Shown here: positions 7,364 to 18,653 of the stretch, one piece after another | How positions within the stretch are numbered: the stretch's first letter is position 1 | How the letters are laid out: every line of letters begins with the position of its first letter | Virus record (IMG/VR): IMGVR_UViG_3300045970_000204 | Location: 1-24,386 of that record | Strand: one strand, 5' to 3' | DNA from: a virus | DNA length: 24,386 nt | Translations under genes and position numbers: made by a program | Notes under the pieces: generated by a model | Database searches by the model: none | What the model saw: only the letters and a program-made list of their open reading frames with translations | Told to the model about the DNA's origin: nothing

Positions 7364-8038
7364 TTAGATAGAGCTATTTACAGCGTGCAGCCAATAGGCG
7401 GCTGCCCGATCCCGCAGCTCTTCCATGTGATCAGCCAGCTTCACCTTGAACTCCATCGGAAACCCAGTGTCTGCGACCATGAGGATGATGCCATCTTCGA
7501 TGGTGGTGCCAAACATCTCATTGTGGGCGAGTGCGTAGAAGGCGAGCTGCACCTTGTACGCGCCGATGTCCTTGTGTCCCTTCAACCGACCAGCGGTCTT
7601 GAAGTCGATGATGACAGGTAGTCGCTTGTAGGTGCCGACGAGATCGCAGCGACCGGCGATCTCGATGCTTGTCGAGTAGAGAGCGCACTCCTGTCCCCAC
7701 ACCTCATCAATCTTGTCGAGCTTCAGCTTGAGCGCCTTGAAGGAAGCCATGTCCGCCTCAGGCACCGAGTGACCGTCGATAGGTGCATCGACCGGTTGCT
7801 TCTTGAGATAGCGCTCAGCCAACAGGTGCACGTTGGTCCCACGATCGGTGGCGGCTTTGCTGATCTCCTGTGCACGTGTGCCTAACGCGTCTTGCCAACG
7901 CTTCAACGAAGCCTTCATCTCAGGCGGCTCAGTGAAGCCCAATATGGTGGTGATCGATGGAAATGCCCCAACTGGGGTAAGATACCAGCGACCACCAAGA
8001 TGTGTTTCTGTCTCAATCTCAGGATACGGATAGCGCAT
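7364..8038 (-). CDS. PD-(D/E)XK exonuclease, RecB/MGME1-like
   Basis: A 224-residue protein with the core of RecB-like nucleases. RGTNVHLLAERYL (66-78) is the family's early helix. E117 in QECALYS, D132 in AGRCDLVG, D145 and K147 in IIDFKTAG form the metal site, and Q164-x3-Y168 in YKVQLAFYALA is the QxxxY motif. The length and SITTILGFTEPPE opening resemble the small phage relatives of mitochondrial exonuclease MGME1, which process single-stranded DNA ends. A role in replication or recombination is likely. The upstream homing-endonuclease gene overlaps its first 20 bases, so no clear ribosome binding site precedes the ATG. All catalytic residues seem present. Confidence 0.8.
   Translation of the reverse strand: MRYPYPEIETETHLGGRWYLTPVGAFPSITTILGFTEPPEMKASLKRWQDALGTRAQEISKAATDRGTNVHLLAERYLKKQPVDAPIDGHSVPEADMASFKALKLKLDKIDEVWGQECALYSTSIEIAGRCDLVGTYKRLPVIIDFKTAGRLKGHKDIGAYKVQLAFYALAHNEMFGTTIEDGIILMVADTGFPMEFKVKLADHMEELRDRAAAYWLHAVNSSI
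7375..7382 (-). promoter_or_regulatory. Candidate late promoter (TGTAAATA)
   Basis: An exact repeat of the octamer at 6365-6372 and extended by a shared AGCT context. It lies inside the last codons of the nuclease gene and 27 bases before the ATG at 7348, which has a GGAGAG ribosome binding site. This spacing fits a normal T4-type late leader. Confidence 0.5.
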
Positions 8039-8672
8039 TGGCTGCTTTCTTTACGAGATAGTGACTGATGCCGAGTGCTTCGCTAGCATCTGTGATTGAG
8101 CGATACTCTACACCACCTACGCATATCTTACGACCCCTCGCTGCACGCATCTTGGCACATACGACCTCACGTTTGTTGGGGTCTCTCTGTCCCAGCTTTA
8201 CCCCAAGACGGCTCAATGACATCTTAGCTTTCGTTTCTGGCGATGCTTTCTTACCAAGCTTTGCCGCTGCCTGCCTTGCTCGCCACTGGTCAGTGCGAGG
8301 TGGTGCCTTCTTACCGCGCCTGCTTTCTGCAGCCTTAGCAATGGTCTCAGGCGACTGCCCTTCGCCAGTGTTGAAGCGCCTGTTTGCAAGTGCAAGATTG
8401 ATGTGCATCGGATTTTTGATTATGTCCAACCTGCGGTGTAGTCGCTCTTCTGCATCATAGGCTTCCTGCCTGGTATCGTATAGCGCAACAACCTGCGTCC
8501 TAAACATCTCAGGATGATGCTCTATCTCTGCTTCCCAGATTTTACGATATCGCCTAGACTTCACGCTGCCGTGATAGCCACGCGCTATTTGCTTGGTGCT
8601 ACTTGACCCAACGTAGAATGGTGGAAGTTTGTTTCCACGATAGGAGGTTAGATAAATGCAGAACTGTTTCAC
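8019..8672 (-). CDS. GIY-YIG homing endonuclease (free-standing, Seg-like)
   Basis: A 217-residue protein. The catalytic GIY-YIG domain occupies residues 4-100: CIYLTSYRG (5-13) for GIY, FYVGSS (19-24) for YIG, then IARGYHGSV with the Arg and His of the motif, and AEERLHRRL carrying the conserved Glu. Residues about 105-165 hold NUMOD3-type repeats (SPETIAKAAESRRGKK, SPETKAKMSLSRLG) that contact DNA, and the C-terminus has a small helix-turn-helix-like part (SITDASEALGISHYLVKKAA, a NUMOD1-type motif). It starts with GTG, overlapping the upstream stop (GTGA), and its stop lies 20 bases inside the next gene. Such enzymes spread themselves between related phages by cutting alleles that lack them. 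The domain architecture is complete. Confidence 0.9.
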   Translation of the reverse strand: MKQFCIYLTSYRGNKLPPFYVGSSSTKQIARGYHGSVKSRRYRKIWEAEIEHHPEMFRTQVVALYDTRQEAYDAEERLHRRLDIIKNPMHINLALANRRFNTGEGQSPETIAKAAESRRGKKAPPRTDQWRARQAAAKLGKKASPETKAKMSLSRLGVKLGQRDPNKREVVCAKMRAARGRKICVGGVEYRSITDASEALGISHYLVKKAANALSVS

Positions 8673-9337
8673 TTTATCCGTTGATTGGCGGCTACTAACC
8701 GCTTCGATGCTGAGCGCATGCGGGTGCGCTTACCCTTGAGGATGCGAATAATCTTCTTCCGACGCCCCGCCAGCCGCAGCTTCATCCGAGTAGACGCCTT
8801 AGCACGTGGCTTTGAGGCGCTCTTCGCTGATGCAACTACACGACCCTTGCGAAAGCCCGACGTCACACGGAAACCACGCTTCAGCTTGTTGCCAGTCCGA
8901 CGGTAGGCGCGCTTGACGCCTTCCTTGATTTCGTTGCCTGGCGCCATAACCTCAGCGTCTGGATCGATTGTATCACCTTCTGCGTCGGTGTCAGGGTTGT
9001 CTTCAGGACCATCGTGCTGCTCAATGCCCATCTCCTTGAGGGTCTTGAGGTCAAGCATGATGCCCTGTGGGTAGGACTTGTCACCATCACGCGACAGGAT
9101 GATGCCGCTGTCACTCACCTCGACATACACAGCGTTGTCATCATGGTCGCGGACCTCACCACTTGCTCCATCCTCAGCAAGGTCAAACAGGATGTTGAGC
9201 TGGTCGATGTCCAACTTCATCGAGAAGCCATCACACGTCAGCAGGATGCCGTGGTGTGCAAGGTGCCCCACATTCCAGCCGTCTTCAGGGACAACTGGTT
9301 GTGGGATCTCCTCAGTGACTTCGCGAATGAGGCGCAT
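8669..9337 (-). CDS. Probable internal head or DNA-binding protein with basic tail, 222 aa
   Basis: I start it at the ATG at 9337, which shares its A with the preceding TGA stop, rather than one codon earlier at a TTG. The N-terminus is MRLIREV, like the short N-termini of the next two genes upstream. Residues about 15-108 form a compact Asp-rich beta/alpha part (GILLTCDGF, AVYVEVSDSGIILSRDG). An acidic stretch (113-135) leads to a strongly basic tail (about 142-222) rich in Lys, Arg, Ser and Ala (KLRLAGRRKKIIRILKGKR). The tail would bind nucleic acid. It resembles the plan of phage head-core or packaged DNA-binding proteins, but I do not recognise a named family. Confidence 0.5.
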   Translation of the reverse strand: MRLIREVTEEIPQPVVPEDGWNVGHLAHHGILLTCDGFSMKLDIDQLNILFDLAEDGASGEVRDHDDNAVYVEVSDSGIILSRDGDKSYPQGIMLDLKTLKEMGIEQHDGPEDNPDTDAEGDTIDPDAEVMAPGNEIKEGVKRAYRRTGNKLKRGFRVTSGFRKGRVVASAKSASKPRAKASTRMKLRLAGRRKKIIRILKGKRTRMRSASKRLVAANQRIK

Positions 9338-10998
9338 CAACGTGTTGGCTGCGTGCCGGTCGGCTCAGTGTTCGGGTTAGCGCGGGTAACACGAGACTTT
9401 GCTTGCGCGAAGGTTGTCGTGAAGCGCTTGACCATTGCCGTCAAGGCACCTGCATTCATCAGCTTGCGATCATTACGGAACTTGGTACCGAGGATCATAC
9501 GTGCATTGCGTGCGAATGCCTCCTCTGGAACTCCAAGCACTTCTACCAACATCATCACAGCATCTGCATACAGATCGGCGCCAGATGGATCGATTGCTTC
9601 AGTCATGGCCTTGTCATCGAGCTCAGCCATTGCGTCCGATGGCTTCAGACCCATGCGAACTGCCAGCATGCGAAGTGCAGCCTTCAACTCACCATTGTCT
9701 TCGATGTCCTTTGATGCCTTGTAAAGGGCGGTGCCGACCACGCCGGGGCCAGTCGTTGAGACCAGGCTCTCAGGCATGCCAAGCTTCACGAGCACTGTCT
9801 CGAGCTGCTTCTGCAGGAAGTTGCCACGCTTGAGGCGGCCTTCTTGGACAGGTGCTGGCTCAGCAGCGATCTTCTTGCCCTTCACAGTAGCAAACAGATC
9901 AAAGAAGGCGTTGAAGGCACGACGCACCGTGAGGTTGGTGCGAAGCAGCTCAGCAGCTTCAGCAACGCTCTCCTCAGCACCAGCGCTGTTGAGCTTGTTG
10001 CCAGGCACGCCAATGAGTGAGAATAATTGGATGATCTTCTTCGGCAGTGGATAGCGCAGCTTCGATGCCAGCGCCTGTTGCTGTGCATCAAGCATGATGT
10101 CATAGCCGTCACCGTCACGGTCACGTGCTCGCTGATTTGATTGTTGCTTGCGCTGGCGCATGCCAGCTTCATCAAGCTGGCTCTCAGCCAGAACGCGTGT
10201 CAGAAACTTGTTACCAATACTCATGTTTGCTCCTTGGGCTTCTACACCCTCTTTGACCTTCTTCATCTTGCTGCCAACGTTTGACAGGTTTGAGTGCTTG
10301 TCGCCCTTCTTAGGGGCAGGCTTTGAAGCCGCTGTCTCTTCCTCTTCAGGCTCTTCCTCAGTAGAGGCAGCTGGCTTCTTCTTTGGTTTCTCAGCCTTCG
10401 GCTCTTTCTCTTCAGGCTCATCAGCCTCTGCCTTGTCTACGGGGGCTTCATCCTCAGGAGATGTGTCATCAGCTGCGATGACGTCCATGTCATCATCGTT
10501 TTCATCATCTGTCGGTGCTTCATCGCCCAGGCTTGGGTCGCCGATGTCAGCGCTGTCGTCGAGATCGACGTCGTCGCCTTCTTCACCAGCAGCGTCAGGA
10601 CCAGTGCCCTTCGGCCAGACCACGTCGACGATGTCGAAGCGAGTAGCCAAGTCATTGATGGCTTCCTCGATGTCGTCTTCCATGCCGAGCATCTTCTTCA
10701 TCTCAGCTTCGAAGGCGTCGGCTTGGGTGGCATTCACGTAGACCTTGACTACCTCACCATCACTGGTCTCCAGTCCGTAGACGACGGTTTCAACGTCATC
10801 ATTCAGGTCACTGGCCTTCTCGAGGTAGTTGGCAACGTCAGATCCGGTAATCTTGCCATCTGCGTTGATGGTGTTGCGCATCAGCGAAAACTTTACATCA
10901 CCAGACCCTGCCTTGGCAGACACGTCATTCTTGCCTGCATCTGAGCCGTCACTCTTCGTGAGGTCATTGGCAGAAAACTCCTGTAGGAGACTTTTCAT
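9337..10998 (-). CDS. Large acidic probable internal head protein, 553 aa
   Basis: The N-terminus MKSLLQEF resembles T4 capsid-targeting peptides (hydrophobic residues followed by x-Glu). Residues 1-128 form a small folded part. Residues 132-222 are extremely acidic (runs such as DDVDLDDSADIGD and TDDENDDD) and then alternate with Lys/Pro (EPKAEKPKKKP). The remaining 310 residues are mostly helical with charged linkers, including FLTRVLAESQ and VKRFTTTFAQAKSRV. There are no enzyme motifs and no Cys. Its ATG overlaps the stop of the 883-aa gene (ATGA) after a GGAG site, and its stop touches the next gene, so all three are made together. A scaffold or internal head protein is the best inference. 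Confidence 0.5.
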   Translation of the reverse strand: MKSLLQEFSANDLTKSDGSDAGKNDVSAKAGSGDVKFSLMRNTINADGKITGSDVANYLEKASDLNDDVETVVYGLETSDGEVVKVYVNATQADAFEAEMKKMLGMEDDIEEAINDLATRFDIVDVVWPKGTGPDAAGEEGDDVDLDDSADIGDPSLGDEAPTDDENDDDMDVIAADDTSPEDEAPVDKAEADEPEEKEPKAEKPKKKPAASTEEEPEEEETAASKPAPKKGDKHSNLSNVGSKMKKVKEGVEAQGANMSIGNKFLTRVLAESQLDEAGMRQRKQQSNQRARDRDGDGYDIMLDAQQQALASKLRYPLPKKIIQLFSLIGVPGNKLNSAGAEESVAEAAELLRTNLTVRRAFNAFFDLFATVKGKKIAAEPAPVQEGRLKRGNFLQKQLETVLVKLGMPESLVSTTGPGVVGTALYKASKDIEDNGELKAALRMLAVRMGLKPSDAMAELDDKAMTEAIDPSGADLYADAVMMLVEVLGVPEEAFARNARMILGTKFRNDRKLMNAGALTAMVKRFTTTFAQAKSRVTRANPNTEPTGTQPTR

Positions 10999-13646
10999 TT
11001 CTTTGCTCCATCCTTAGGACGTGGAAACTTGTAACGGGAGATGTCAGGATTGCGCTTCATCATGACTGTCTTGCGATTGTTCTTGCCGAAGATTGGCTGT
11101 TGATAGCTTGCAACACTGCCAGCGGTAGTTGCTGCGGCAGGTCCGATAGGAGATGCACCACCAGGTCCACCAGCAGCGGCGGCCATGGCGCCAGCAGCTT
11201 CACCATCTTCAGTAATAGCAGTCACTCGTTGTAGCAGCTTCATCTCTTGGACCATCTGATCATTCTCACCATTGGCATTCAGCAGCAAGTTGTCGTAGAT
11301 CACGCGCAGGCGATAGGCAAGTGGTGAGTTAGCAGCAAACTGCTGAATGTAGTAGAACAGCTTGGTGTGGAACTTAACCTTCTCATCAAAGGATAGCTCA
11401 CTGTACCCAAACGTTCCATTCAGGAGTGTATTTACGCGGTCGTTGTTCATTCCTGGTGTTCTGAGCAGGACTGCAAACGCCTTGCGGTGCTCAGCCCATT
11501 CCACCTTGCGGACCTTGCCATAGCTCAGATCCATGTGCAGGAAGCGCCAGTAGCTGGCAGGCACGTGACGCACCTGCTGGAAGATCTGCTTTGCAACCTT
11601 AGGACCAACCAGCTTCTTGACCGCAGGTGTGCCTGAGCGCCATACCACGTAGCCCCAGAAGTTCAGCGGCGACATCTCCTTGTTCCAGCTCGTGAGACGC
11701 ATGTGCGTCTGGTCACGAAGCAGCTTGATGCCGGTGGTGTCATCAGCTTGGTAGATGATCGAGGCCATCATGTAAACTGCCAGATAGGTGTTCAGGATTG
11801 TCCATGCGTCACGGCCATGGTACTGCGATACGTCGGTGACGATGCGCTTCTCAGCCAGCATGTGCTCACTGAGCGTCTTCACAAACTCGATGTCGCCGCC
11901 CCAGTCAACCTCCATATCAGCAAGCGCATCCCACAGCGCGTCCTCATGCACTGACTGATCTGTCTTGATCTCAAACTCATAGCCACCGCCCTCAGCATCA
12001 TCGCGGATACGCTTGAGCTTGACGCCCTTCTTTCCACCAATCGTCTTTGAAGCCAACGCAGTCATGATGCGGTGCTCTTGCACATTCGCCTCATCTGGGT
12101 TTGAGCTGGCAGTAGGGCTTAGGGTGATGTTCCAGATCCTATCGCCCTTGCTTTCGGCAACTGGTTCGGTTGGCTCAGCAGGTTCAATCTCATGCACTGC
12201 CTTGGCGATCTTGCCATACAGCAGGGCTACCAACTGCACGAGGCTCTTGGTCTTGGCAACCTTCTCACCCAGCTCGGTGACATCTCTCTTGGCTTCAGCG
12301 TACGCAACGAGCGTACGACGAATGACCTCGGCGCTGAGACCCATCGTCTTGCCGCTCTTGAGCTTCAACTGAAATTCATCCTTGTTGGCCTTGAAGTCCT
12401 TCAGTGACTGCTCGAGCTCAGCCTTGGTGTTGTCGATGAGCGCGGCGATCTTGGTCTTGATGCCACGATAGTCATCGTTGTTGGTCAGTTCCTTGGCTAC
12501 GTTCTTGACGGTCTCTTCAGCCGTTGTGCCCTTGACTGTCTGAAAGATCTTCTTGGCAGTCTGGGTGCGTGCCAGATCCTGGTTGCCCAGCAGATCTGCG
12601 ATCGTGATCTTCAGCTGACCCAGCATACCGCCACGTGCCTCAAGGCTGGCCTGTGGGTCGAGTGTCTTGATGGTGCCTGAGATTGATCCGCGAACTGCAT
12701 GGTTGAACTGGTTCATCGTCGTGAACGTGTCCTTATCAACCAGCTTGACCTGCTCACCATTGTCTGGGTCGCGAAGCACAACACCCTCGACGCCGTTGTC
12801 CTCATCTGCTGAGAGGTCATCTGCTGCGAGTGGGGACTTGATCTTGCTAACGAACTTGTCGAGCAGCTCCTTCTTGATTGGCAGCTTGAAGTCGGTCAGG
12901 ATCTTGGCCAGGATCTGCGACTTCAGCACCTTCGCGGCTGGGCGGATCTCCTTGTCGATAGCACCGAGCGATGCAGTCGCCAAGTCAAAGTTGGTGATGG
13001 TCTTGCCCTCAAGTGGGGCACGCTGACGCAGATAGTCCTGCAGTTTTGCGAGCTGCTTTGCTACGTCAGTGGTCTTCAGATGGGTTGTGTCTAACTTCTG
13101 CACACCCACAAACTGGAAGAGGACATCAGTAGGAGTGAGCTTCAGGTTGACGCCATCAATGGTGTCGACGGTCTGAACGCTGACGGTGACTGTCGTGTTG
13201 TTGAAGCTGTTGGCCAGCTGGTCTACGATGGCATCAGGGGTGCCCTCAACACCGCGCAGGAAGGCGATGTAGTTACGACCACCAGCGCCGTAGGTGACAG
13301 CATTCGGTTGACGCCCGTAGAGGACCTCGATCTCGACCGTAGATCCTGGATTGAGGACCTTCTTGATCTCACTTTCCTTAGCCTTCAGCGCCGCATGGGC
13401 AGCCCGAAAACCGTTGTAGGCAGCGAAGTACGGATACTCCTTCTCCTCGTACATGTTCTCAGCGTTCTTGCGCTTGCCTGCACGGGATGTAAACAACCGA
13501 CCATCGTCATCGATACCGAACCACAAATTGGCACCATCGAGTTTCTCGGCTGCTTGTAGTTTAGCCAGGTTGCCCACCACCTTGATGAAGGTCTGGAGAT
13601 CCAGATCTTCCAAATGTTGGATGCCTTCGGTGATTAGTTTGATCAT
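10995..13646 (-). CDS. 883-aa protein with N-terminal ligase-type nucleotidyltransferase domain
   Basis: Residues about 25-310 carry the covalent nucleotidyltransferase signature of ATP-dependent DNA/RNA ligases. Motif I is EK35-L-D37-G38 with the candidate nucleophile Lys35; motif Ia is TS54-R55-AGK; a motif III-like EIEVLYG lies at 105-111; motif IV is E287-G-V-V-L-R; and motif V is VK301-L-V. All key residues are present. The long remainder is mainly helical (coiled segments about 370-480, a hydrophobic helical part about 610-810), then an Ala/Gly/Pro-rich low-complexity stretch and a basic tail. The N-terminal MIKLITEG matches the T4 prohead protease cleavage rule (L/I-x-E, then G/A), suggesting targeting into the head. 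The substrate is unknown. It is much longer than known phage ligases, so the C-terminal two thirds are probably structural. Confidence 0.65.
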   Translation of the reverse strand: MIKLITEGIQHLEDLDLQTFIKVVGNLAKLQAAEKLDGANLWFGIDDDGRLFTSRAGKRKNAENMYEEKEYPYFAAYNGFRAAHAALKAKESEIKKVLNPGSTVEIEVLYGRQPNAVTYGAGGRNYIAFLRGVEGTPDAIVDQLANSFNNTTVTVSVQTVDTIDGVNLKLTPTDVLFQFVGVQKLDTTHLKTTDVAKQLAKLQDYLRQRAPLEGKTITNFDLATASLGAIDKEIRPAAKVLKSQILAKILTDFKLPIKKELLDKFVSKIKSPLAADDLSADEDNGVEGVVLRDPDNGEQVKLVDKDTFTTMNQFNHAVRGSISGTIKTLDPQASLEARGGMLGQLKITIADLLGNQDLARTQTAKKIFQTVKGTTAEETVKNVAKELTNNDDYRGIKTKIAALIDNTKAELEQSLKDFKANKDEFQLKLKSGKTMGLSAEVIRRTLVAYAEAKRDVTELGEKVAKTKSLVQLVALLYGKIAKAVHEIEPAEPTEPVAESKGDRIWNITLSPTASSNPDEANVQEHRIMTALASKTIGGKKGVKLKRIRDDAEGGGYEFEIKTDQSVHEDALWDALADMEVDWGGDIEFVKTLSEHMLAEKRIVTDVSQYHGRDAWTILNTYLAVYMMASIIYQADDTTGIKLLRDQTHMRLTSWNKEMSPLNFWGYVVWRSGTPAVKKLVGPKVAKQIFQQVRHVPASYWRFLHMDLSYGKVRKVEWAEHRKAFAVLLRTPGMNNDRVNTLLNGTFGYSELSFDEKVKFHTKLFYYIQQFAANSPLAYRLRVIYDNLLLNANGENDQMVQEMKLLQRVTAITEDGEAAGAMAAAAGGPGGASPIGPAAATTAGSVASYQQPIFGKNNRKTVMMKRNPDISRYKFPRPKDGAKK

Positions 13647-13650
13647 CGAC

Positions 13651-13658
13651 TATTTATG
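13651..13658 (-). promoter_or_regulatory. Candidate late promoter (CATAAATA) directly before the start codon
   Basis: CATAAATA on the - strand, four bases before the ATG at 13646 and just after a hairpin. No ribosome binding site lies between. A T4-type start point would fall at or next to the ATG. Confidence 0.5.
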
Positions 13659-13662
13659 AGCA

Positions 13663-13692
13663 AAGGGCAAGGAAGTCGCCCTCCTTGCCCTT
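13663..13692 (-). terminator. Hairpin terminator downstream of the 90-aa gene
   Basis: AAGGGCAAGGA (13663-13673) pairs with TCCTTGCCCTT (13682-13692): an 11-bp stem with an 8-base loop. On the - strand it is followed by T-T-T-G-C-T-C, a weak U tract. It separates the 90-aa gene from the next late-type promoter. Confidence 0.55.
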
Positions 13693-13715
13693 CTTCGAAC
13701 TACGTACTGGGCGAC

Positions 13716-17879: not shown

Positions 17880-18653
17880 ATGCACCCTGTTGATAACAAG
17901 TACACACACTGGTATTACGCACTTATGCAGAAGCGCAGGAATACACCACTATTGAAAGTTGGTGGATATTGCGAGAACCATCACGTTCTACCAGAATGTC
18001 TCGGCGGTCCCAATACCAAGGAGAACATGATAATGCTCTCAGCACGAGAGCATTATGTAGCGCACTTGCTACTGACAAAGATGTTCGATGGCGATGCTAA
18101 AAAACGGATGCATTATGCGTTCTATTCAATGCGTCGCAAGAAAGCCGGCATGGTGCGATATGAGCCCAATAGTCACATTTATGAGATACTGGTCAAAAAG
18201 ATTGATAGGGCCCCATCAGAAGAAACACGCAAGCGCATGCGTGATAGCGCAAAGCTTAGACCCCCGCAAACAGAAGAAACTCGACAACTTCGAAGCGCAG
18301 CAGTAAGGGCCTCATACACCCCTGAACTTAGAGCATCACGTTCTGCTCAGTTCAAGGATAAACCTTTTACAGACCAACACCGTCGTAACTTGTCAGCAGG
18401 TCAGAAGGGTAAAGTTATGTCAGAAGCGTTCATTGAATATTGCCGCCAGCGCAGGGGCGAGAAGAACGCTCGCTCTAAAACCTGGGTAATATCATCGCCA
18501 ACCGGTGAAATCTTTACCACCAAAGCTATGGGTGATTTCTGCAATCAGCATGGCTTAGCTTATAGTGCATTTAGAAACCGGGCACGCGAAAATAGTCGTA
18601 GCCCGCTGGTGAAGGGACCGTCGAAGGGCTGGTCCCTCCTATCCTGCGCCTGA
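17880..18653 (+). CDS. HNH homing endonuclease with NUMOD3 repeats
   Basis: A 257-residue protein. The HNH catalytic unit lies at about residues 30-65: ENHHVLPECLGGPN with the His pair 34-35, N49 region, and REHYVAH with H58/H62. This is the form typical of phage free-standing HNH enzymes. Residues about 110-205 hold NUMOD3-like DNA-contact repeats (SEETRKRMRDSAK, TEETRQLRSAAVR, TDQHRRNLSAGQKGK). The C-terminus (FTTKAMGDFCNQHGLAYSAFRNRAR) looks like a NUMOD1-type helix-turn-helix. It is the only + strand gene in the replication block and is visibly richer in A and T than its neighbours, both signs of acquisition. A GGAGAG site fixes the start. It would cut related phage genomes that lack it. 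Confidence 0.88.
   Translation: MHPVDNKYTHWYYALMQKRRNTPLLKVGGYCENHHVLPECLGGPNTKENMIMLSAREHYVAHLLLTKMFDGDAKKRMHYAFYSMRRKKAGMVRYEPNSHIYEILVKKIDRAPSEETRKRMRDSAKLRPPQTEETRQLRSAAVRASYTPELRASRSAQFKDKPFTDQHRRNLSAGQKGKVMSEAFIEYCRQRRGEKNARSKTWVISSPTGEIFTTKAMGDFCNQHGLAYSAFRNRARENSRSPLVKGPSKGWSLLSCA

What the first reader, a model, noticed from the sequence alone, without database searches (positions are those of the whole stretch)
10995..13646. Ligase-type nucleotidyltransferase domain at the front of an 883-aa probable head protein
The sequence shows all core motifs of the covalent nucleotidyltransferase superfamily (K35-x-D-G, S-R, EIEVLYG, E287-G-V-V-L-R, V-K301) in one protein with over 570 further residues of helical and low-complexity character. 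Phage DNA and RNA ligases are normally 300-500 residues and sit with nucleic-acid genes. This one is coupled to two probable internal head proteins, starts with a prohead-protease-like cleavage motif and has a late-type promoter. It could be an enzyme carried inside the capsid and injected to seal or cap nucleic acid early in infection, or a structural reuse of the fold.
Basis: partly seen in the sequence, partly recalled or inferred. Interest (0 to 1): 0.78.

Follow-up and report, generated by a model that had tools for sequence, protein, structure and literature searches.

The report
Phage head-linked RNA-ligase-like enzyme
A giant virus of bacteria carries a gene for an RNA-joining type of enzyme built into a large protein that looks designed to be packed into the virus head, cut to size there and probably delivered into the host with the viral DNA; if confirmed, it would be a ligase that a phage brings along ready-made.

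Summary
The gene (10995-13646, minus strand, 883 aa) has every core motif of the covalent nucleotidyltransferase (DNA/RNA ligase, capping enzyme) superfamily. K35, E107 and E287 are invariant in 27 homologues and K301 in 26. AlphaFold models residues 8-486 well (pLDDT 90, pTM 0.85), and the closest solved folds are RNA ligases (TbREL1 Z 9.1, NgrRnl, T4 Rnl2 and Rnl1, Trl1). The family is found almost only in large T4-like phages. A short form (308-492 aa) occurs in PA5oct, Atu_ph07, Phosso and metagenomic phages. The window belongs to one well-supported clade (11 members, 96/94) in which the enzyme gained a T4-late-type promoter (8/11), an N-terminal L/I-x-E leader like that of T4 Alt (9/11), a second L/I-x-E before a basic tail (9/11), and coupling or outright fusion to an acidic LLxE-led protein. 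Best reading: a catalytically intact RNA-ligase-type enzyme turned into a head-packaged, protease-processed, probably injected protein. Fold and catalytic conservation are shown; packaging, injection and RNA sealing are inferred. Against it: PA5oct's short form was not flagged by virion mass spectrometry, and one clade member (L050) has lost the motif V lysine.

The parts
10995..13646 (-). 883-aa gene: covalent nucleotidyltransferase with head-protein features (P0001)
   Evidence: homologues
13626..13646 (-). N-terminal leader MIKLITE| (residues 1-7), predicted gp21-type cleavage after E7; disordered in the model
   Evidence: L/I-x-E|[GSA] in 9 of 11 clade members; pLDDT 46 for residues 1-10
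12708..13625 (-). nucleotidyltransferase domain (residues 8-313): motif I K35-L-D-G (codon 13544-13542), SR55, motif III E107 (13328-13326), IIIa F179, motif IV E287-G (12788-12786), motif V K301 (12746-12744)
12189..12707 (-). helical domain (residues 314-486), present in nearly all family members
   Evidence: alignment; model, mean pLDDT of each 10-residue block 84 or more up to residue 480
11892..12146 (-). small ferredoxin/S6-like domain (residues about 501-585), present in window and L004, absent in L005, and located inside the P0002-type gene in L047
11271..11831 (-). C-terminal helical domain (residues about 606-792), probably homologous to a separate gene downstream of the short form in Atu_ph07, Phosso and L028
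   Evidence: weak; Atu_ph07 262-aa protein among matches, TMt 0.56
10998..11216 (-). second predicted cleavage site A-I-T-E813|D followed by Gly/Ala-rich basic tail TTAGSVASY...KTVMMKRN...KFPRP
   Evidence: [LI]xE[DEA] before the tail in 9/11
9337..10998 (-). 553-aa acidic protein (P0002) with LLQE|F leader; its start overlaps the end of the enzyme gene by 4 bases; fused to the enzyme in L009-L012 and L050
8669..9340 (-). protein with LIRE|V leader and very basic C-terminus, probable internal head protein
   Evidence: equivalents in L004, L005, L046, L047
13651..13658 (-). T4-late-type -10 box CATAAATA, 4 nt before the ATG
13662..13693 (-). stable hairpin (MFE -26 kcal/mol, z -5.0) between the upstream 90-aa gene and the late box, terminator-like

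Best explanation
P0001 is a late-expressed polyprotein-like head component of a large T4-like phage. Its front end is a catalytically intact, RNA-ligase-type covalent nucleotidyltransferase: K35 is the predicted nucleotidyl-lysine, with E107, F179, E287 and K301 in the pocket. The leader MIKLITE and the rest of the coupled unit direct it into the prohead, as the capsid-targeting propeptides of T4 Alt and the IPs do. The phage's gp21-type protease removes the leader after LITE and cuts again at ITE813|D, releasing the mature enzyme (about residues 8-813) beside the acidic and basic head proteins encoded next to it. The enzyme is stored in the head and enters the host with the DNA. There it most probably seals 5'-phosphate/3'-OH ends, most likely in RNA such as tRNAs cut by host defence nucleases, before any phage gene is expressed. 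Shown here: fold, motif conservation, clade-wide late promoter, leader, fusion, and protease gene in relatives. Inferred: cleavage, packaging, injection, and the RNA-sealing substrate.
For: Invariant catalytic residues. AF2 of residues 1-490: pLDDT 90.2, pTM 0.85, leader disordered. Closest solved folds TbREL1 Z 9.1 (rmsd 3.7 over 190 residues), NgrRnl 8.6, T4 Rnl2 8.3 (that row has rmsd 19; 2hvq 7.8 at rmsd 4.2), T4 Rnl1 8.2, Trl1 7.9, with DNA ligases proper at 6.6 or lower. The range ends of the TbREL1 alignment put K35 and K301 opposite its motif I and V lysines (inference from ranges and known TbREL1 numbering). PF09414 matched by 20/22 members. The distant homologue in Atu_ph07 is named RNA ligase in UniProt. 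The window's clade is single (96/94) and has the late box in 8/11 against 0 of 18 short forms (0.07 loci expected) and L/I-x-E|[GSA] at the leader in 9/11. The enzyme gene is directly upstream of, or fused with, the LLxE-led acidic protein in the clade. A gp21-type protease PF03420 is present in 4 of 5 related contigs searched. T4 gp21 cuts after L/I-X-E, and Alt has a 7-residue N-propeptide, C-terminal processing and is injected (PMC9026906). The L005 contig also has a DNA ligase, two stronger RNA ligases and an RlaP, so this is not the replication ligase.
Against: No virion proteome of this clade. The PA5oct short homologue gp256 is not flagged ESI-MS/MS although neighbours gp258, gp257 and gp254-gp249 are. 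[LI]xE in the first 12 residues occurs in 16/90 MS-positive and 25/139 other PA5oct proteins, so the motif alone says nothing. L005 and L013 lack the leader motif. L050 has R55L, V290T and K301T, so the activity may be dispensable there. Motif V reads K-x-V-D, where DNA ligases and T4 Rnl1/Rnl2 have K-x-K (own knowledge). Foldseek E-values are weak (best 5.8e-3). No substrate evidence, and no kinase/phosphatase partner was seen in the window.
Confidence: 0.45

Rival explanations
1. An active RNA/DNA ligase made late in infection that works in the infected cell, not in the virion: for example repair of nicked RNA, or joining late in replication or packaging. Its fusion with head proteins tethers it to assembling heads.
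For: The short forms sit right behind primase and helicase and PA5oct gp256 is not flagged in the virion. The short form lies next to a pol-beta-like nucleotidyltransferase, resembling the RNA-ligase/RlaP repair pairing described for jumbo phages (PMC7824862).
Against: The window clade has its own late promoter and L/I-x-E leader and tail sites and is fused or coupled to an LLxE-led acidic protein. The contexts differ: no pol-beta partner in the window.
Confidence: 0.27
2. A structural or assembly protein that reuses the ligase fold: nucleotide binding or the fold itself serves head assembly, with catalysis secondary. T4 RNA ligase 1 (gp63), which also promotes tail-fibre attachment, is a precedent.
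For: Long helical and low-complexity additions; loss of R55 and K301 in L050; T4 Rnl1-type proteins are annotated 'RNA ligase and tail fiber protein attachment catalyst' in PHROGs.
Against: K35, E107, E287 and K301 are all kept in 10 of 11 clade members and 16 of 16 short forms across about 25% identity.
Confidence: 0.15
3. A virion enzyme that seals nicks in the phage's own DNA after entry, or a capping-like GTP-dependent transferase acting on RNA 5' ends.
For: The same superfamily includes DNA ligases and capping enzymes (human capping enzyme among Foldseek rows).
Against: RNA ligases fill the best rows; the L005 relative has its own DNA ligase; the model is helical, with no evident OB domain, after motif V.
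Confidence: 0.1

Closest known systems
PA5oct gp256 / Atu_ph07 gp066 / Phosso protein 446 (uncharacterised; Atu_ph07 copy named RNA ligase in UniProt)
   Same: Same family, same catalytic residues, same place just behind primase and helicase
   Different: 340-446 aa, no late box, no C-terminal extension; E-before-G leader absent; pol-beta-like gene close by instead of the acidic protein
RNA ligases of the covalent nucleotidyltransferase superfamily (TbREL1, T4 Rnl2, T4 Rnl1, NgrRnl; Pfam PF09414)
   Same: Fold and motifs I, Ia, III, IIIa, IV, V
   Different: About 13-15% identity, below the PF09414 gathering score, K-x-V in motif V, 570 extra residues, late promoter and head-protein features
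T4 Alt (packaged and injected ADP-ribosyltransferase)
   Same: N-terminal propeptide of 7 residues ending in L/I-x-E, predicted C-terminal processing, enzyme probably delivered with the DNA (PMC9026906)
   Different: Unrelated enzyme fold; packaging of P0001 not demonstrated
RNA-ligase plus RlaP (pol-beta) RNA repair sets of jumbo phages (PMC7824862)
   Same: Ligase-type enzyme close to a pol-beta-like nucleotidyltransferase in short-form genomes
   Different: The neighbour is not recognised by the RlaP model, and is missing from the window
Polyvalent proteins (PMC5512222)
   Same: Multidomain phage proteins predicted to be packaged, processed and injected
   Different: No RNA ligase domain in polyvalent proteins is reported in the passages read there

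Membership tests
Covalent nucleotidyltransferase superfamily | Motif I K-x-D/E-G with nucleophilic Lys | tested here: met
   EK35LDG, 27/27 homologues
Covalent nucleotidyltransferase superfamily | Motif III Glu, motif IIIa aromatic, motif IV E-G | tested here: met
   E107 27/27, F179 24/27, E287-G288 27/27
Covalent nucleotidyltransferase superfamily | Motif V Lys | tested here: met
   K301 26/27; canonical second Lys of K-x-K is Val here
Covalent nucleotidyltransferase superfamily | Adenylyltransferase fold | tested here: met
   AF2 pLDDT 90; the best 31 rows of the VIA comparison are all ligases of this superfamily, Z 7.3-9.1
Covalent nucleotidyltransferase superfamily | Covalent lysyl-NMP intermediate | not testable with these tools
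   needs purified protein
Pfam RNA_ligase PF09414 | Score over the curated cut-off (27 bits) | tested here: not met
   window 20.7 bits, E 5.1e-4
T4 Rnl1 or Rnl2 subfamily | Family-specific C-terminal domain | tested here: inconclusive
   domain 314-486 is helical; partial alignment to Trl1 and Rnl3-type ligases at rmsd above 5
T4-type packaged internal proteins (Alt, IPI-III) | Short N-terminal propeptide ending L/I-x-E | tested here: met
   window LITE|G; 9/11 of clade; motif alone not diagnostic in PA5oct
T4-type packaged internal proteins (Alt, IPI-III) | gp21-type protease in the same phage | tested here: inconclusive
   PF03420 in 4 of 5 related contigs; the window is a 24-kb fragment
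T4-type packaged internal proteins (Alt, IPI-III) | Presence in the virion | not testable with these tools
   no proteome of this clade; PA5oct short homologue not flagged
RlaP RNA-repair pairing | PF10127 gene beside the ligase | tested here: not met
   pol-beta-like genes near the short forms are not recognised by PF10127; none in the window

The most novel reading that the evidence does not exclude
A phage head packages a pre-made RNA ligase as a protease-processed polyprotein module and injects it with the genome, so that RNA (for example tRNA) cut by host defence nucleases can be resealed from the first moment of infection: a ligase counterpart of T4 Alt.
Probability: 0.35. Interest if true: 0.85.

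Novelty: new variant of a known kind. Interest (0 to 1): 0.62.

Why it matters
RNA and DNA ligases of phages are known as enzymes made inside the cell. None of the held papers found by the searches describes one carried in the virion (most subscription papers are not held). If this enzyme is packaged, RNA repair against tRNA-cutting immunity could begin before phage gene expression, and the leader, tail and fusion layout would show how a giant phage turned a replication-side enzyme into a head passenger in one traceable evolutionary step. The family also has cultured short-form relatives (PA5oct, Paride, Callisto, Atu_ph07) that today carry mostly 'hypothetical protein' labels, so the biochemistry is testable now.

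Tried and rejected
Bare [LI]xE leader as proof of packaging: not enriched in PA5oct MS-positive proteins (16/90 against 25/139; stricter forms also not significant), so not used as proof. Direct sequence search of the PDB with P0001 (no hit) and with profile A2 (only weak unrelated hits). NCBIfam and PHROGs: no useful family. Profile comparison of the C-terminal domain with the separate Phosso/Atu_ph07 gene: suggestive only (E 0.006, probability 6%). Profile comparison with the strong RNA ligase of the L013 contig: only the motif I region aligned (E 0.008). DUF6267 as the parent family: three members hit it at E 0.011 or worse, and a 9-record search gave one sub-threshold hit elsewhere; left open. 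Prokaryotic origin: only one relative in 84,980 species genomes, on a contig of a Cloacimonadota MAG. RNA families and tRNAs in the window: none. Supplementary proteome tables of Atu_ph07 and the PA5oct omics paper could not be read.

Full report
WHAT IS THERE. The finding's coordinates hold a single 883-aa ORF on the minus strand, ATG at 13646. Its neighbours on the same strand are, upstream, a 90-aa protein, DnaB-type helicase, primase, exonuclease and family B polymerase, and downstream a 553-aa acidic protein (P0002), a protein with a very basic C-terminus, a GIY-YIG-like ORF and a PD-(D/E)XK nuclease (the GIY-YIG label is by eye). The record is a 24-kb virus fragment.

FAMILY. Named phages with a homologue are PA5oct and its relatives (MIJ3, Paride, Callisto and others), Sinorhizobium phage Phosso and Agrobacterium phage Atu_ph07, all annotated 'hypothetical protein' in their records. 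IMG/VR gave 24 loci by profile and five by the P0002 neighbour, with overlap. Only one of 84,980 prokaryote species genomes gave a relative, on a contig of a Cloacimonadota MAG.

CATALYTIC MOTIFS. In 22 sequences at 21-62% identity to the window the invariant columns include the ligase motifs: E34 K35 D37 G38, E107, E287 G288 V290, K301, plus D304 and F308. In a 27-row set K35, E107 and E287 are 27/27 and K301 is 26/27; the exception, L050, also has R55L and V290T. Pfam RNA_ligase PF09414 is hit by 20 of 22 members, best 6.9e-6, though the window itself (20.7 bits) is under the curated 27 bits. Motif V reads K-x-V-D where T4 Rnl1/Rnl2 and DNA ligases have K-x-K (own knowledge), a real deviation.

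FOLD. AlphaFold on the 490-residue N-terminal part with 23 sequences: pLDDT 90.2, pTM 0.85, only residues 1-7 and the end disordered. VIA-align 2 puts RNA ligases on top: TbREL1 Z 9.1 (rmsd 3.7, 190 aligned), Naegleria RNA ligase 8.6, T4 Rnl2 8.3, T4 Rnl1 8.2, Trl1 7.9; DNA ligases proper follow at 6.6 and below, apart from a putative Aquifex ligase at 7.2. The full-length model gave a similar order. Z near 9 is modest and Foldseek E-values are weak (5.8e-3), but the best 31 rows are one superfamily and agree with the motifs.

THE WINDOW'S CLADE. A maximum-likelihood tree puts the 11 extended members in one clade (96/94). Traits of the clade follow. (a) A T4-late-type box YATAAATA within 50 nt of the ATG in 8 of 11; 0.07 loci are expected from box density in the ten loci counted, and none of 18 short-form loci has it. 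In the window the box follows a stable hairpin (-26 kcal/mol, z -5.0). (b) L/I-x-E|[G,S,A] directly before the conserved I-x-H in 9 of 11: LITE|G window and L046, LLSE|G L004, LLVE|G L047, ILTE|G L048, IILE|S L009, MLIE|S L010, VLME|A L011, LLTE|S L050; the residues before it vary freely. Short forms mostly have K, R or S there, with one E (L020). (c) [LI]xE[D,E,A] before a Gly/Ala-rich, basic-ended tail in 9 of 11. (d) An acidic protein, usually with its own LLxE start, is next to it or, in L009-L012 and L050, fused to it in one frame of about 1,080-1,150 aa.

Clade members are not independent, so these counts show consistency within one lineage, not repeated origin.

HEAD LINK. T4 gp21 cuts after L/I-X-E; T4 Alt has a 7-residue N-propeptide, is also cut near its C-terminus and is injected (PMC9026906). 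The window protein mirrors that layout. A gp21-type protease (PF03420) is in 4 of 5 related contigs. In Atu_ph07, CDS 31-76, which includes the homologue gp066, is one of three clusters that hold most virion proteins, with 29 identified by mass spectrometry (PMC6102473); whether gp066 itself was found could not be read. In PA5oct the short homologue gp256 carries no ESI-MS/MS note while neighbours gp258, gp257 and gp254-gp249 do. A general test in PA5oct shows that a bare [LI]xE near the N-terminus does not mark virion proteins (16/90 against 25/139). So packaging is a reasoned inference, and for the window clade only.

WHAT IT MIGHT DO. The L005 relative separately encodes a DNA ligase, two clear RNA ligases and an RlaP-type enzyme, so P0001 is not the replication ligase. 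Several short-form genomes carry a pol-beta-like nucleotidyltransferase close to it (GS...D-x-D...D), reminiscent of the RNA-ligase/RlaP pairing proposed for tRNA repair in jumbo phages (PMC7824862), although PF10127 does not recognise those neighbours. Together with the RNA-ligase-first fold ranking, RNA end sealing is the most likely chemistry. Delivery by the virion would let it act before phage transcription. The chain is: enzyme fold (predicted and matched), intact active site (shown by conservation), late synthesis (box shown, transcription inferred), leader and tail cleavage (inferred), packaging and injection (inferred), RNA sealing (inferred).

DOMAIN HISTORY. Residues about 606-792 probably match, by fold (Atu_ph07 262-aa protein, TMt 0.56; the aligned range is not printed, so assignment to this region is inferred) and weakly by profile, a separate gene that lies two genes downstream of the short form in Phosso, Atu_ph07 and L028. 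A small S6-like domain (501-585) sits in the enzyme in the window and L004 but in the P0002-type protein of L047. The locus thus looks like a head-gene neighbourhood in which the enzyme has been joined to its neighbours.

VERDICT. Observation confirmed. Interpretation partly supported. New variant of a known kind: an RNA-ligase-type enzyme in a head-protein architecture, with no description found in the papers that could be searched.

Noticed in passing
window 13646-13658 (-); also L004, L046 and, with CCTAAATA, L048: The late-type box ends only 4 nt before the ATG, so a T4-like start site would give a leaderless mRNA; other clade members have the box about 30-42 nt upstream.
   Followed up: partly
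L001:14570-15283, L002:13199-14059, L003:13028-13861, L014:9639-10535, L028:9208-10071: A pol-beta-like nucleotidyltransferase family (GS..GDxD...QxD) close to the short-form enzyme, not recognised by Pfam RlaP; the PA5oct copy (gp253) is flagged ESI-MS/MS, i.e. found in virions.
   Followed up: partly
window 11892-12146 (-) and L047:5309-5536: A small ferredoxin/S6-like domain sits in the enzyme in the window but in the neighbouring acidic protein in L047: domain shuffling between adjacent genes.
   Followed up: partly
window 9337-10998 and 8669-9340 (-): Two further genes start with LLxE/LIxE-type leaders, one acidic, one with a very basic C-terminus; both conserved in the clade and without any family hit.
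   Followed up: partly
window 8019-8672 (-), 17880-18653 (+); L047:1004-1669; L020:6058-6699: GIY-YIG-like and HNH homing-endonuclease-type ORFs inserted among these genes; in L047 one lies directly before the enzyme gene.
   Followed up: no
L050:2069-5305: Fused clade member with R55L, V290T and K301T: possibly an enzyme on the way to losing activity.
   Followed up: partly
window 7364-8038 (-): PD-(D/E)XK nuclease (PF12705, E 7e-9) conserved in the head-gene neighbourhood.
   Followed up: no
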